Positions 1 to 34,334 of a stretch of DNA of 64,000 bases are shown here, in pieces. Origin of the DNA: Ruminococcus sp. (lineage in GTDB: Bacteria; Bacillota; Clostridia; Oscillospirales; Acutalibacteraceae); assembly GCA_017403985.1 (NCBI GenBank), contig JAFRDE010000013.1, forward strand, positions 1 to 64,000. Direction: 5' to 3'. The stretch's first letter is position 1. Every line of letters starts with the position of its first letter. The notes below the pieces were generated by a model. That model worked only from the letters and a program-made list of their open reading frames with translations. It was not told where the DNA came from and did not search any database. Both the position numbers and the translations under genes were made by a program.

Positions 1-140
1 GAAGCAGTTATTGGCGAGCAGATTTGAGTCTGATCGAGGAAAAACCGCAGCGAATACTGACGTATTCACGAGGATTTTGACGAAGAGCAGGCACAAATAT
101 GCCGCCAAGAACCGATTGGGGGTTCGACTCCCGTTACCTT
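1..140 (+). ncRNA. Structured RNA / dispersed repeat, copy A (5' part outside window)
   Basis: About 100 nt from position 15 align with few gaps, at roughly 75-80% identity by eye, to the minus strand of 30387-30658. Two hairpins are shared. GAATAC-TGAC-GTATTC at 52-67 corresponds to GAACCC-TGAC-GGGTTC in the other copy, with two base pairs changed compensatorily and the TGAC loop kept. GGCA-CAAATA-TGCC at 90-103 corresponds to a GGGC..GCCC hairpin with the same AAATA loop core. The start of the element lies left of the window. A 'ggttcgactccc' T-arm-like string at 120-131 is not accompanied by the rest of a tRNA. The RNA family was not recognised; raiA-like motifs are only a guess. Confidence 0.55.
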
Positions 141-221
141 AACCTATAGTATTCTACATGAATATTAGTCTCATGTCAAGAAAAATGCATTCAGCGGTAT
201 CTGTTTATTTTCACATTATAT

Positions 222-2233: not shown

Positions 2234-2321
2234 ATAATTCGAAAAAAGAAAATGTGCCGATTGAATCATGCAGAAAAGCCACCGTTCATATACATGAAAC
2301 GGACTTGACCGCGTGAGGACG

Positions 2322-2403
2322 GCACTCCGGAGAATCCCAACATTGGGTGCCGAAGGGGCAAGCACAGTAATGTGTCAATCTCTCAGGCAAAAGGACGGAG
2401 CTT
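2322..2403 (+). promoter_or_regulatory. Glycine riboswitch (single aptamer)
   Basis: The conserved core of the gcvT/glycine aptamer is present: CCGGAGA, then GGGTGCCGAAGGGGCAA, then CTCTCAGGCAAAAGGAC. The P1 strands CTCCG (2325-2329) and CGGAG (2396-2400) pair. Only one aptamer is visible. A small hairpin at 2282-2302 (CCGTT..AACGG region) precedes it and could supply the flanking structure seen in singlet glycine switches. It is followed by a terminator hairpin and a Na+/amino-acid symporter, which fits control of glycine/alanine transport. Confidence 0.92.
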
Positions 2404-2424
2404 TGATAGGACGTTTTTGTGGGT

Positions 2425-30347: not shown

Positions 30348-30386
30348 TGGTATACTGTAATGGTATGAGCACGATTATGATGTGTG

Positions 30387-30658
30387 CCAACCGAGAACAA
30401 ATCCGAACCCGGTTTTGACGGGCATATTTCCGCCCGCTCTTTGTTGAAATCCTCGCGAACCCGTCAGGGTTCGCTGTGGTTTTGCCGCGATCGGACGAAA
30501 ATCTGCTCCGGCAAAACTCCGAAGGACTAAAAATGAGCAAGATTTCGTGCAAGTCTCGGTGCAGAAAGAGCAGGCAGGCCGGCGCCTGCCAAGATTGATA
30601 AGCCGAGAATTGCCGAAATATTGCCATTTGCTGCGAGTTTGGATTTATTCTCGGCTGG
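30387..30658 (-). ncRNA. Large structured RNA candidate, copy B
   Basis: The ends 30641-30658 and 30387-30404 form an 18-bp helix. As minus-strand RNA all 18 positions pair, two of them as G-U, while on the plus strand two would be A-C mismatches. This fixes the strand. Inside are GGCAGGC-GCCG-GCCTGCC (30573-30590), GCGAACCC-TGAC-GGGTTCGC (30455-30474) and GGGC..AAATAT..GCCC (30420-30435). The last two recur with compensatory changes in copy A at 1-140. No protein is convincing in either orientation. The family is not recognised; raiA-like or another large bacterial RNA class should be tested. Confidence 0.7.
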
Positions 30659-30664
30659 CTGGGT

Positions 30665-31429
30665 ATGCCTATGAACAACAATAAACAACAACCGTATTCG
30701 AATGATGAACTGCTGATCGGACGCAACCCGGTCGCCGAGGCGCTCAGCTCCGGACGCTCCGTGATCAAGGTGATGATCGCCAAGGGCGGTGCATCGGGCG
30801 CGGCGGTAGAGATCGCCGCCAAAGCGAAGAAGGCGGGGATCCCCGTGCAGGAGGTCGACCGCAAAAAGCTCGATTTCATGACCGGCGGCGCGGCGCATCA
30901 GGGCGTAGCGGCGCTGTGCGCGGTAAAAGAGTATTCCTCTATAGAAGATATCCTCGCGCTGGCGGAAGAGAGGAACGAAGCGCCGTTCATCATCATCCTT
31001 GACGAGATCGAGGATCCGCATAACTTAGGCGCGATCATTCGCTCGGCGGAATGCGCCGGCGCGCACGGCGTCGTCATCAAGAAGCGCCGCAGTGCGGGGC
31101 TGACCTACACCGCGTATAAAGCGTCGGCAGGCGCGCTCGAATACCTGCCCGTCGCGAGGGTCACAAATATCGCCGACACCGTGGACGAGCTGAAAGCCCG
31201 CAACATCTGGGTATACGGCGCCGATATGAACGGTACGGACTACCGAAAGACCGACTTTTCGGGCGGGGTCGCGCTGGTCATCGGCAACGAGGGCAAGGGG
31301 ATCTCGCGGCTTGTCAGAGAGAAATGCGACGTCATCGTATCTCTGCCGCTGAAGGGTAAGATCAACTCGCTGAACGCCTCCGTCGCCGCGGGAATACTGA
31401 TGTATAAGGTCGCGGAGAGCAGAGAATAG
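30665..31429 (+). CDS. rlmB: TrmH/SpoU-family RNA 2'-O-methyltransferase (RlmB-like)
   Basis: A 254-residue SPOUT methyltransferase. An N-terminal substrate-binding domain (about 15-90, with LIGRNPVAEAL and HQGVAAL) precedes the knotted catalytic domain with all three SpoU motifs: ILDEIEDPHNLGAIIRSAE near residue 103, VIGNEGKGIS near residue 206 and LPLKGKINSLNASVAAGI near residue 228. RlmB methylates 23S rRNA G2251; in Clostridia some homologues modify other sites. No good Shine-Dalgarno sequence precedes either ATG (30665, 30671). The start lies 7 nt from the 5' end of the minus-strand structured RNA. Confidence 0.88.
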   Translation: MPMNNNKQQPYSNDELLIGRNPVAEALSSGRSVIKVMIAKGGASGAAVEIAAKAKKAGIPVQEVDRKKLDFMTGGAAHQGVAALCAVKEYSSIEDILALAEERNEAPFIIILDEIEDPHNLGAIIRSAECAGAHGVVIKKRRSAGLTYTAYKASAGALEYLPVARVTNIADTVDELKARNIWVYGADMNGTDYRKTDFSGGVALVIGNEGKGISRLVREKCDVIVSLPLKGKINSLNASVAAGILMYKVAESRE

Positions 31430-31634: not shown

Positions 31635-34334
31635 ATGGGTCTGTTCCGCAGAGATAAGAATCACAAGGACGCGAAATACAAGACAAAAGAAGTTTTTACC
31701 AAGGCGGAAGAAACCGAGCAGCCCGCGGACGAAGAGCCGTCCGACGAGGAGTATACCGATATCAGCGAAGCGGCTGTCGACTCATTTTCTCAGCCTCAAA
31801 GCAACAATAAGATGGAGGAGATCTACTCCACAAGAGATAAACACGTCAAGTTCCGCCGTCAGGAACCGCTGGCGGAAGAAGCCGCCGCAAAGCGCAAAGA
31901 GGCGGCTAAGGACGACCTCATCCGCGGCAAACTGGAATTCAGCTCCGTCGGCGACGAGGATACGCCCGAGGTAAAGCTGGAAGCGGAGCTGGATCCGAAC
32001 GCGATCGTCAGCGACGAGATCATCGAGGACGTTGTCGACGTCAAGAAGCTGAGAAATATCTACGTTCAGGATATCGACGATATCGACGTCAGCCTCGATC
32101 CGATGGAAAGCGTCAAGGAATACGAAAAGCAGGCGCAGGACAAGCAGCGCCGCGACGCACGTTCCGCTAAGAAAAAGCCGGAAGAGCCTTATGTCCCCAC
32201 CGGCGATACCGTGGTCGCGAAGGTGCCGGTGTATCAGCATGAGGACAGCGTGGACAAGCTCTACCTCAAAGCCGGCCGCTTCACGGACGTCGTCGAGAGC
32301 GAATACGACGAATACCTCAAATCCACCGATCCCACGATCTCCAAAAACTATCACGCGCCGAAGCCGATGGTGAAGCCGCACCAGAGCCTGCTGTACACCC
32401 TCAGTCAGGTCGCCATGCGTCATAAGGCGGAATCCGAGCAGAAGCAGAAGAGCAAGGAGATCATGCGCAACAACTTCGACGAGGAAGCGCCGAAGCCAAA
32501 AGAGAAAAAGAAGCGTTCCCGCGTCGGAAAATTCTTCCGCGTTTTGTCGGCTGTGATCACATCGGGCTTCAACTCTCCCTCCGAGGACGAGCAGGAGCGC
32601 GCGATGGACTACAGCTCCCGCGAGGACGAGAACTACATACTGGAAAGAACCCGCAGCAACATCAAGCGGCAGGCGATCCACCTGACGCTGTACATCGTGA
32701 TCGGTCTCGCGATCCTCGGTCTGGTGATCTGGGAACGCGCCGCGGGCGCTCAGGCAGTCGCCGCGAACGGCGCCGGAACCGCCTTCACCTACTGCGGACT
32801 GAACTTCATCCTGACGATCGCGCTGGGCGTCGTCGCGAGACATACACTGATCGACGGCGTCAAGCCGCTGAAACGTTTCAAATTCAACTGCAGCACCGTG
32901 CTCGCCCTCGCCTACGGCGCCTGTCTGCTGCAGAGTCTTACTTCGCTGTTCACCTGCACCTCTTTTGTCGGCAGCGATCACCATCTGTACAGCTTTGTCG
33001 CCGCGTTCGGTCTGGCACTGAACGCTTTAGGCAGACTGCTGATGGCGCTGAGGGTCAAGAGCAACCTCAAATTCATCAGTGACCGATCCCCCGCATATGC
33101 GGCGAAGATATACGACGACGAGGAAACCGCGCGGCGCATGGTCAGCGGTACCACTACCTCTAAGGGCATGATCGCATACCAGCATGTCACCCGTTTCCTC
33201 TCCGACTTCTTAAAAATCTCCTACGCCCCCGATCCGAGCGAGGAGCTGTCCGGAAAGATGGCGCCGATCGCGATCATCGCTTCCCTGTTCGTCACGATCC
33301 TGTACGCGATCATCTTCAAGAGCGTTCAGGGAGCCGTTTCCGCTCTGGCAGTCATGCTGTGCATCAGCATCCCGTTTACCGGCATGCTCGCCGGCAACCT
33401 GCCGCTGCTGCTGTTCAGCCGCAGGATGCTTAAGGAAGACGCAATGATCGCGGGTTATCCTTCCGTACGCCAGTTCTGTGACACCTCCGCGATCATGATG
33501 AGCGCGAGCGACCTCTTCCCGTCCGGTTGCGTCACCATCCAGGAGCTGCTTCCCCTGCAGGAATACAGGGTCAGCGAGAGTCTGCTGATGGCGGCTGCAG
33601 TTCTGCGCGAGGCGGCGTCGCCCATCGCTCCCGCCTTCGACGAGCTGGTCATGGAAAACAACAACGTCCTGCCGGCGGTAGAGAGCGTCATGTTCGAGGA
33701 TAAGAGCGGGCTGGTCGGCTGGATCAACGGCGAACGCATACTGATCGGCAACATGAAGCTGATGAACCGCTACCATATCTCCATACCCACCGACAGGATC
33801 TCCTCCAAGCGCAAGAATAAGTCGCTGGAGACCTCTTACGTCGCGGTAGCCGGACAGGCTGTCGCCGTACTGGGGCTGTCATACGAAGCATCCAAAGTCA
33901 CCAAAGATCAGATACAGAAAGCAGAACGCAGCGGACTGGCGCTGATCGTCAGCACGACCGACGTGAACGTCACCGCGGAGCTGATCTCCGACCGCTACGA
34001 GGTATTTTACCGTTCGGTCAAGGTCACAGCTCCCGGCTACTCGAACGTGATCGATGAAGCCACCACCAAGGTGGAGGAAGCCTCGCGCGCCTATGTCGCT
34101 ACGCGCGGGCGCATCGGTTCGCTGGCACGCGCCATCGGCGGATGCATCGGCATCAAGTCCAACATCAGCCTCGGTATCGTCGTCGGTATCTTCGGCATGA
34201 TTCTGGGTATTCTGCTGAGCGCGACGCTGGCGCTGTACGCCTCTGTCGCAAGGCTGTCGATCGTGGAAGTGATGATCTATATCGGTTTCTGGGTAGCGGC
34301 TACCATTATCGCGGAGCTGATCAAGAGACCGTAG
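31635..34334 (+). CDS. Degenerate P-type ATPase-like membrane protein
   Basis: An 899-residue protein. Residues about 1-335 are charged, rich in Asp/Glu/Lys and probably disordered. Four membrane segments follow (about 350-480), then a short cytoplasmic part, then helices with CISIPFTGMLAGNLPLLLFSRR near residue 580, which resembles the M4-to-P-domain entry of heavy-metal P-type ATPases. At the position of DKTGT the sequence is FCDTSAIMM: the Asp remains, the rest is lost. N-domain-like GLVGWINGERILIGNMKLM follows near residue 695. TGES and GDGxND motifs are absent. The last ~60 residues form two membrane helices. It is probably not an ion pump; its role is unknown. AAAGGAG sets the start at 31635. 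Confidence 0.65.
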   Translation: MGLFRRDKNHKDAKYKTKEVFTKAEETEQPADEEPSDEEYTDISEAAVDSFSQPQSNNKMEEIYSTRDKHVKFRRQEPLAEEAAAKRKEAAKDDLIRGKLEFSSVGDEDTPEVKLEAELDPNAIVSDEIIEDVVDVKKLRNIYVQDIDDIDVSLDPMESVKEYEKQAQDKQRRDARSAKKKPEEPYVPTGDTVVAKVPVYQHEDSVDKLYLKAGRFTDVVESEYDEYLKSTDPTISKNYHAPKPMVKPHQSLLYTLSQVAMRHKAESEQKQKSKEIMRNNFDEEAPKPKEKKKRSRVGKFFRVLSAVITSGFNSPSEDEQERAMDYSSREDENYILERTRSNIKRQAIHLTLYIVIGLAILGLVIWERAAGAQAVAANGAGTAFTYCGLNFILTIALGVVARHTLIDGVKPLKRFKFNCSTVLALAYGACLLQSLTSLFTCTSFVGSDHHLYSFVAAFGLALNALGRLLMALRVKSNLKFISDRSPAYAAKIYDDEETARRMVSGTTTSKGMIAYQHVTRFLSDFLKISYAPDPSEELSGKMAPIAIIASLFVTILYAIIFKSVQGAVSALAVMLCISIPFTGMLAGNLPLLLFSRRMLKEDAMIAGYPSVRQFCDTSAIMMSASDLFPSGCVTIQELLPLQEYRVSESLLMAAAVLREAASPIAPAFDELVMENNNVLPAVESVMFEDKSGLVGWINGERILIGNMKLMNRYHISIPTDRISSKRKNKSLETSYVAVAGQAVAVLGLSYEASKVTKDQIQKAERSGLALIVSTTDVNVTAELISDRYEVFYRSVKVTAPGYSNVIDEATTKVEEASRAYVATRGRIGSLARAIGGCIGIKSNISLGIVVGIFGMILGILLSATLALYASVARLSIVEVMIYIGFWVAATIIAELIKRP

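What the first reader, a model, noticed from the sequence alone, without database searches (positions are those of the whole stretch)
30387..30658. Large structured RNA candidate with an 18-bp closing helix on the minus strand
Seen: the ends of a 272-nt intergenic element pair over 18 positions as minus-strand RNA (two G-U pairs), but would have two A-C mismatches if transcribed from the plus strand. Internal hairpins are well formed. The TGAC-loop hairpin and the AAATA-loop hairpin recur in the partial copy at 1-140 with compensatory base changes. This combination (covariation, strand-specific wobble pairs, size, intergenic position) is the pattern of a genuine large ncRNA. I do not recognise the family; raiA-like RNAs are one candidate.
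Basis: partly seen in the sequence, partly recalled or inferred. Interest (0 to 1): 0.82.

Follow-up and report, generated by a model that had tools for sequence, protein, structure and literature searches.

The report
Clostridial palindromic mobile element family
The "large RNA" is one copy of a roughly 275-bp piece of jumping DNA that folds on itself; relatives are scattered in many copies through gut Clostridia, and it seems to be kept for its ability to move rather than as a working RNA at this spot.

Summary
The structure is real; the "minus-strand ncRNA" reading is not supported. Window 30386-30659 is a 274-bp insertion: three related genomes have the empty site upstream of rlmB, and two sister copies show an exact TA target duplication. 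Terminal inverted repeats (TIRs) close two long hairpin arms. It belongs to a dispersed family: matches in 79 of 394 genomes sampled in the order and 59 of 391 in the class (own genome included), and none outside the order in a 398-genome phylum sample. Most delimited members are 270-285 bp. Outer TIRs differ widely between elements yet match within each. Covariation is strong (65 of 104 pairs), but G-T and A-C departures are about equally common, unlike RNase P of the same genus. Copies under 3% divergent differ by one-sided changes only (79 versus 0), so pairing is regained along propagating lineages, not kept at each site. This fits a TA-inserting MITE-type element whose spread needs its palindromic fold. 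Unusual are the constant architecture, the exchangeable TIR sequence, and no IS630 (DDE_3) or DDE_Tnp_1_2 transposase in 19 carrier genomes. The mobilising enzyme is unknown. No Rfam family matches.

The parts
30386..30659 (-). Whole element, 274 bp, in the family's common orientation (the orientation of model R1)
   Evidence: Ends set by alignment of the two arms and by empty sites in G017, G012 and G052
30386..30411 (.). One terminal inverted repeat arm, 26 bp (GCCAACCGAG...)
   Evidence: arms pair
30634..30659 (.). Other terminal inverted repeat arm, 26 bp (...CTCGGCTGGC)
   Evidence: arms pair
30385..30385 (.). Remnant of the left TA target duplication (A lost)
   Evidence: empty site reads CATACC-TA-CACAT on the minus strand; assignment by inference
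30660..30661 (.). Remnant of the right TA target duplication (now TG)
   Evidence: assignment by inference
30412..30517 (-). P4 hairpin arm with the TGAC apex; basis of model R1
   Evidence: R1 match 124.7 bits (the copy is in the model's alignment); helices 6-7, 94-97% of cells paired
30518..30526 (-). P3, a 3-bp hairpin at the junction
   Evidence: helix 5
30527..30633 (-). P2 hairpin arm with the GGCAGG/CCTGCC apex; this arm carries ~110-nt inserts in some copies elsewhere
   Evidence: helices 2-4; inserts
1..139 (+). Partial second copy (subfamily B) cut by the contig start: P4 arm and right TIR
   Evidence: R1 match at 7-112; 95% identical to a full 278-bp B copy with its TA ends
140..141 (+). 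TA at the end of the partial copy
   Evidence: same boundary in full B copies
30665..31429 (+). rlmB, 23S rRNA (guanosine-2251-2'-O)-methyltransferase; host gene next to the insertion, not part of it
   Evidence: TIGR00186, 253.4 bits, cutoff 160.15

Best explanation
A non-autonomous, MITE-type mobile DNA element of about 275 bp that inserts at TA and duplicates it. Its terminal arms and two internal arms are palindromic, so either DNA strand can fold into a closed three-arm hairpin. Propagation depends on this Watson-Crick pairing: copies that lose pairing decay in place, while lineages that keep or restore pairing go on spreading, so TIR sequences drift widely between lineages but stay matched within each element. 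The mobilising enzyme acts in trans and is unidentified. Shown: insertion, TA duplication, multicopy dispersal, matched TIRs, covariation, no strand bias, range over many genera of the class. Inferred: that pairing is needed for mobility, and that an enzyme in trans moves it.
For: Empty sites for 3 of 14 tested insertions: the finding's site in three genomes, the L036 and L033 sites in one each, with exact TA duplication at the latter two. In the distant genome G460 a repeat that carries the element (L336) also occurs 4.4 kb away without it, CCGCC-TTAA-GAGGC against TTAA on both sides of the element, which fits a TA duplication. Own genome: 6 or 7 copies of the A/C kind and 11 nearly full plus 5 partial B stretches. 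Matches in 79 of 394 order and 59 of 391 class genomes. Outer 14 TIR bases: 1.3 mismatches between arms of one element, 7.25 between arms of different elements, 68 of 71 used. Covariation 65 of 104 pairs. G-T against A-C: 59:87, 42:40 in TIRs, 116:151 in 47 members. At <3% divergence 79 one-sided and 0 two-sided changes, two-sided ones growing with divergence. Of 101 distant matches examined 83 had a paired-arm call, 63 of these 270-285 bp long. Remnants of little more than the two TIRs.
Against: No autonomous relative or transposase found: no DDE_3 in 19 genomes, no DDE_Tnp_1_2 in 19. TIR patterns in 6 genomes gave one inverted pair at 0.6-4 kb (G017:C28, 1.1 kb); its far end lies inside a 179-aa frame and looks like chance. 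11 of 14 sites gave no counted empty match. The finding's own duplication is decayed (TA to CA and to A on minus). TA counts (52 of 71; 63 of 75) come from searches that reward TA or allow it a window. TIRs of B copies are out of register in A1, so helix 1 is under-counted. The slight G-T lean to the plus strand and the 36 of 44 long open frames on the model strand are unexplained. A constant interior is unusual for a deleted IS.
Confidence: 0.8

Rival explanations
1. Ordinary IS-derived MITE: relic of a TA-inserting IS (IS630/Tc1-mariner or IS427-like) whose sequence-specific transposase is lost or unassembled. The fold is a by-product and each TIR subfamily matched a different transposase. 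(Overlaps with the best explanation except on the role of pairing.)
For: TIR plus TA duplication is the IS630 signature (recalled). Related copies share TIRs. Assemblies break at repeats, so ISs may be missing from MAGs.
Against: No DDE_3 in 3 and 16 genomes, 7 of the 16 being at least 90% complete; no DDE_Tnp_1_2 in 19; no credible autonomous TIR pair in 6 genomes. The interior is better conserved than the outer ends across the order, the reverse of what is expected of a deletion derivative.
Confidence: 0.3
2. Moved by a large serine recombinase: such enzymes cut with a 2-base stagger (recalled), which would also leave the same dinucleotide, here TA, at both ends of an inserted circle. (Compatible with the best explanation; it names an enzyme.)
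For: A resolvase/recombinase gene (PF00239, PF07508, PF13408) lies 0.3 kb from a copy in L114; related frames occur in L136 and L254.
Against: Only 3 of the 205 loci examined by blastp hold such a frame; these enzymes are common in Clostridia (recalled); no whole-genome association was tested.
Confidence: 0.1
3. Large structured ncRNA transcribed from the minus strand with a function at its locus.
For: Stable fold and covariation. Gene starts lie slightly more often on the sense side, 27 against 19 of 125 sites. Three terminator-like hairpins inside the element against 0.7 in shuffles, two on plus and one on minus.
Against: No G-U excess on the minus strand, while RNase P shows one on its own strand; empty sites; no Rfam match; one promoter-like site, on plus, with 0.7 expected by chance; copies decay one-sidedly.
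Confidence: 0.06
4. Pairing is kept mutationally, by template switching that corrects imperfect palindromes, without selection.
For: Both strands are treated alike.
Against: Close copies show 79 one-sided and 0 two-sided changes, whereas one-step correction should give two-sided changes at once. Particular mismatches persist inside helices: C-A at columns 64-108 in 25 of 31, T-G at 66-106 in 29 of 31.
Confidence: 0.07
5. RNA-mediated mobility: a folded transcript of either strand is the moving form or guides the enzyme.
For: Conserved unpaired stretches and a fold shared across the order.
Against: No wobble bias; a TA duplication and paired DNA ends suit a DNA-level mechanism.
Confidence: 0.06

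Closest known systems
ERIC/IRU, Correia/NEMIS and RUP bacterial MITEs (Delihas 2007, PMC2229807; passages seen)
   Same: Short, dispersed, TIRs with TA at the termini, target duplication, strongly base-paired transcripts; movement by transposases hypothesised, without experimental support at that date
   Different: About 275 bp against <200 bp in that paper; two internal arms besides the end stem; outer TIR sequence changes between elements; range over many families of one class. That paper calls such elements A+T-rich; GC of the P4 arm is 0.52 in the two copies from the window's genus and 0.31-0.52 over the best matches
IS630/Tc1-mariner-derived MITEs (recalled)
   Same: TA target duplication, TIRs, no transposase inside
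   Different: No DDE_3 transposase in 19 element-bearing genomes; outer TIR sequences differ widely among elements
REPIN/RAYT elements (recalled; PMC3116915 seen in search listings only)
   Same: Dispersed palindromic non-autonomous DNA in bacteria whose enzyme is not on the element
   Different: As recalled, REPINs are shorter and make no TA duplication; RAYT-type genes were not searched for here
raiA and other large bacterial RNAs in Rfam
   Same: Size and covarying multi-arm fold
   Different: No Rfam match; mobile and multicopy; no strand-specific wobble

Membership tests
Bacterial MITE (general) | Short, dispersed in many copies | tested here: met
Bacterial MITE (general) | Terminal inverted repeats | tested here: met
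   in the finding's own decayed copy a strict repeat search reports none
Bacterial MITE (general) | Target site duplication on insertion | tested here: met
   Exact TA at 2 sites, decayed at the finding's site, consistent at L336; 11 of 14 sites not informative
Bacterial MITE (general) | No transposase gene inside | tested here: met
   Longest stop-free stretch 97 codons, in varying frames, over 47 members
Bacterial MITE (general) | Moved in trans by a transposase sharing its TIRs | tested here: inconclusive
   None found, but many genomes are fragmented or incomplete and only two transposase families were searched
IS630/Tc1-mariner MITE | TA duplication | tested here: met
IS630/Tc1-mariner MITE | Related DDE_3 transposase in host genomes | tested here: not met
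   0 of 3 and 0 of 16; controls ring
raiA RNA / any Rfam family | Covariance-model score at or above gathering | tested here: not met
   Only the glycine riboswitch at 2317-2408; nothing credible at E<=10 around the element
Strand-specific structured ncRNA | Excess of G-U over A-C among departures from Watson-Crick pairs on the transcribed strand | tested here: not met
   59:87 on minus against RNase P 69:19; 116:151 with 47 members; mild lean to plus, 88:60 and 166:114
Strand-specific structured ncRNA | Discrete transcript | not testable with these tools
   No expression data on hand
ERIC / Correia / RUP | Sequence homology to those families | not tested
   Their sequences were not fetched

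The most novel reading that the evidence does not exclude
A lineage of mobile DNA, spread over a whole bacterial class, that is recognised by shape rather than by end sequence. A host-encoded or otherwise separate enzyme acts on the folded three-arm hairpin (cruciform or single strand) with TA at its tips, so TIR sequence is free to change so long as it stays palindromic; the element has no IS ancestor.
Probability: 0.25. Interest if true: 0.86.

Novelty: new variant of a known kind. Interest (0 to 1): 0.62.

Why it matters
It turns one odd hairpin into a large family of structured mobile elements in Clostridia (many named carriers are ruminant-gut genomes), matched by no Rfam family. Because end sequence varies while pairing stays, the family is a natural experiment on what a MITE's mobilising enzyme reads: sequence or fold. 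It also warns RNA finders that covariation alone can come from mobile palindromic DNA; comparing G-U with A-C departures helps to separate the two.

Tried and rejected
raiA or another known RNA: rejected by cmscan.

Minus-strand RNA from wobble pairs: rejected with an RNase P control from the same genus and a small tRNA control (11 tRNAs, 20 G-T, 0 A-C; ARAGORN itself favours pairs).

AAATA hairpin: no covariation.

Autonomous transposon with the same TIRs: TIR pattern in six genomes gave element-length pairs, single ends and one inverted pair at 0.6-4 kb, whose far end lies in an unrelated frame; TIR scan of the loci held; search for a second arm up to about 5 kb upstream where the contig allowed, whose one strong far match (L336) is a copy of the target repeat without the element.

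DDE_3 and DDE_Tnp_1_2 transposases: none in 19 genomes each. Other transposase families were not searched.

Phage or plasmid carriage: no exact pattern match in IMG/VR, no blastn match in plasmids or phages.

A gene that recurs beside copies: the largest cluster spans 14 of 205 loci and looks like an ABC transporter; a serine recombinase cluster spans 4 loci (3 by direct blastp) and is kept as a lead.

Strong orientation bias to neighbouring genes: weak only, 27 against 19 of 125 sites.

Template switching as the only source of palindromy: disfavoured by the excess of one-sided changes.

A coding element: open frames in varying frames.

Full report
What was claimed.

Check of the observation. 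The 18-pair end helix with two G-U pairs is there. The minus strand folds at -130 kcal/mol (z -9.4, 0 of 200 shuffles as good), the plus strand at -123.4 (z -8.8); as DNA the two strands are alike (-74.1 and -72.3). The TGAC hairpin does recur with compensatory changes. The AAATA hairpin does not covary. A strict inverted-repeat search reports no pair of 15 bp or more in this copy; the arms are 26 bp with mismatches. cmscan finds no Rfam family: the only match in the window is a glycine riboswitch at 2317-2408, and at E<=10 four hits far below their thresholds appear around the element.

It is a dispersed repeat. In its own genome (G000, 2.68 Mb, 63 contigs) there are 6 or 7 copies of this general kind (two pieces at contig ends may be halves of one), some with an insert or shortened. 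A second subfamily, B, to which the partial copy at 1-140 belongs, has 11 nearly full stretches (245 bp or more) and 5 partial ones at contig ends, some of which may be halves of one copy. Several contigs, the window's own among them, begin or end in a copy. Of 39 genomes searched (own included), 5 have matches at E<=0.001: G000, G012 and G017 many, G005 and G015 one each. By equal contig lengths, G012 corresponds to the CAMJMQ assembly and G017 to RUG041 (an inference).

It is an insertion. Flanks of 14 insertions, joined without the element, were searched in 40 genomes of the genus. For 3 of the 14 sites a spanning empty site was found and aligned: the finding's own site, upstream of rlmB, in G017, G012 and G052; L036 in G012 (a weaker 72% match in G050 was not aligned); L033 in G048. 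L036 and L033 show TA once in the empty site and on both sides of the element. The finding's site reads CATACC-TA-CACAT when empty and CATACC-CA-[element]-A-CACAT here, an old insertion with decayed duplicates. The other 11 sites gave no counted match; flank pieces of L047 match a dispersed repeat that runs up to 16 bases past the junction and were not counted. In G050 the rlmB site holds about 75 bp of other sequence between the flanks. In the distant genome G460 the element of L336 sits in a repeat of which a copy without the element lies 4.4 kb away: CCGCC-TTAA-GAGGC when empty, TTAA on both sides when occupied, which fits a TA duplication though TTAA itself is possible there.

Anatomy. Outer arms of about 20-26 bp pair; inside lie a long arm P2, a 3-bp hairpin P3 and a long arm P4 with the TGAC apex. 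In a set already limited to 245-300 bp, 64 of 79 elements are 270-282 bp; copies with ~100-nt inserts (about 370 bp) and internally deleted ones (177-204 bp) also occur. Outer TIR sequences fall into many types (GGGTGACAGGAATA, AGCAACCGAGAATA, GGGTAACAGAAGCA, AGGTAACGGGAGTC, GGCATCCGATACAA and others). The two arms of one element differ by 1.3 of 14 bases on average, those of different elements by 7.25; 68 of 71 unique elements were used, 3 with overextended ends dropped. L108 joins a B-type interior to an A-type TIR. Remnants that keep little more than the two TIRs exist.

Covariation. On 31 non-redundant full elements (from 58 of 255-290 bp, by a 93% identity limit, two odd copies dropped; alignment A1), 104 pairs were tested: 88.7% of cells pair, 65 pairs change on both sides, 390 double-change cells against 75-104 for structures slid by 1-3 columns and a shuffled mean of 124. 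The TIRs of B copies are out of register in this alignment, so helix 1 is under-counted.

But not as a strand-specific RNA. In a structured RNA, departures from Watson-Crick pairing should favour G-U over A-C on the transcribed strand. RNase P from the same genus (25 of 30 fetched sequences; five longer than 365 nt dropped) gives G-T 69: A-C 19 on the true strand and 43: 63 on the other. The element gives 59: 87 on minus and 88: 60 on plus, its TIRs 42: 40, and a 47-member alignment from across the order 116: 151 and 166: 114 (at a stricter threshold 58: 52 and 53: 62). If anything the lean is against the minus strand. These counts are not independent of relatedness. Mismatches conserved in whole lineages come in both kinds: T-G at columns 66-106, C-A at 64-108.

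How pairing is kept. Among 122 unique elements, pairs of copies under 3% divergent (49 pairs) show 79 one-sided and 0 two-sided differences at paired positions; at 3-6% it is 207 and 36, and two-sided changes grow with divergence. RNase P has fewer one-sided per two-sided changes in every bin (0.7 against 2.9 at 6-10%), but only 3 sequence pairs under 3% (8 and 1). So individual copies seem to decay like free DNA after insertion, while the lineages that keep spreading regain pairing. The simplest reading is that pairing matters for propagation. A purely mutational palindrome repair would give two-sided changes at once.

Range. A covariance model of the P4 arm (R1; 29 of the 31 sequences, two with deletions in this arm left out) finds matches in 79 of 394 genomes of the order (38 of 168 genera, E<=1e-4), 59 of 391 of the class (36 of 223 genera, E<=1e-6), and 4 of 398 in a phylum-wide sample, all four within the order; each count includes the own genome, and strict filters may lose weak matches. 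From 100 fetched regions 101 matches were examined: 83 had a paired-arm call, 63 of them 270-285 bp; the rest are cut by contig ends, lack an arm or are overextended. Their outer TIRs are yet other sequences.

Mobilising enzyme. None was identified. DDE_3 (IS630/Tc1-mariner) is absent from 3 and 16 carrier genomes, DDE_Tnp_1_2 from 19; the same searches ring in control genomes. TIR patterns in six genomes gave one inverted pair at transposon distance, judged chance. Among genes near copies in 205 loci no transposase cluster stands out; a large serine recombinase lies 0.3 kb from a copy in L114 and related frames occur in two other loci, a lead only. Many genomes are incomplete or fragmented, so absence is not proof.

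Known relatives. Passages of Delihas 2007 (PMC2229807) describe bacterial MITEs with TIRs, TA termini, target duplications and base-paired transcripts (Correia, ERIC, RUP) and say that mobilisation by transposases lacked experimental support. In a 2024 review (PMC10969869, passages) the words searched for Ruminococcus, Firmicutes and Clostridia do not occur in the main text. Five literature searches listed no paper whose title or abstract start describes this family; the library holds open-licence papers only.

Verdict. A TA-inserting MITE-type element family, not described in what these searches cover, with a conserved three-arm fold that seems needed for spread. It works like a MITE and meets the tested defining features except that no mobilising transposase was found. 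That the enzyme reads shape rather than end sequence is the boldest reading left open, at about one in four.

Noticed in passing
L003, L004, L038, L041, L043, L045, L046 (P2 apex); L244 near 1667-1718: A separate ~107-113-nt repeat (GCGTC...GGGGACCCCGATCAA) sits in the apical hairpin of P2 in several copies, replacing one or the other side of it. About 50 nt of the same repeat lie in a variable part of the RNase P RNA gene of G017, which is 487 nt long where most relatives have about 345. It may be a second element that settles in hairpin tips.
   Followed up: partly
L010, L012, L074, L075, L077, L078, L079: Short remnants in G000 that keep little more than one or both TIRs of an element, as if the interior had been deleted between the arms.
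   Followed up: partly
right TIR of window copy 1-139 and B-type and distant copies such as L257, L259, L260, L294, L299: The inner TIR often reads like GGTTCGACTCCC, resembling the T-arm and 3' end of a tRNA (resemblance recalled, not tested); the TTCG core tends to stay while its surroundings change in matched pairs.
   Followed up: no
L247, L250, L255, L265, L278 and others: Several copies sit so that the TA at one end is part of the upstream gene's stop codon or the other end abuts a ribosome-binding site (TAAGGAG...), so TA in tight operon junctions seems a common target.
   Followed up: partly
L114:4190-5785 and element at L114:6088-6361: A large serine recombinase gene (PF00239, PF07508, PF13408) lies about 0.3 kb from a copy; related frames occur in L136 and L254. 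Whether it has to do with the element is untested.
   Followed up: partly
window 2317-2408: Glycine riboswitch aptamer, 63 bits; ordinary.
   Followed up: no
G050:C61 near 33530-33603 (L201): At the rlmB site where the element is missing, this genome has a different ~75-bp sequence with short direct repeats between the flanks, so the spot may have been used more than once.
   Followed up: no
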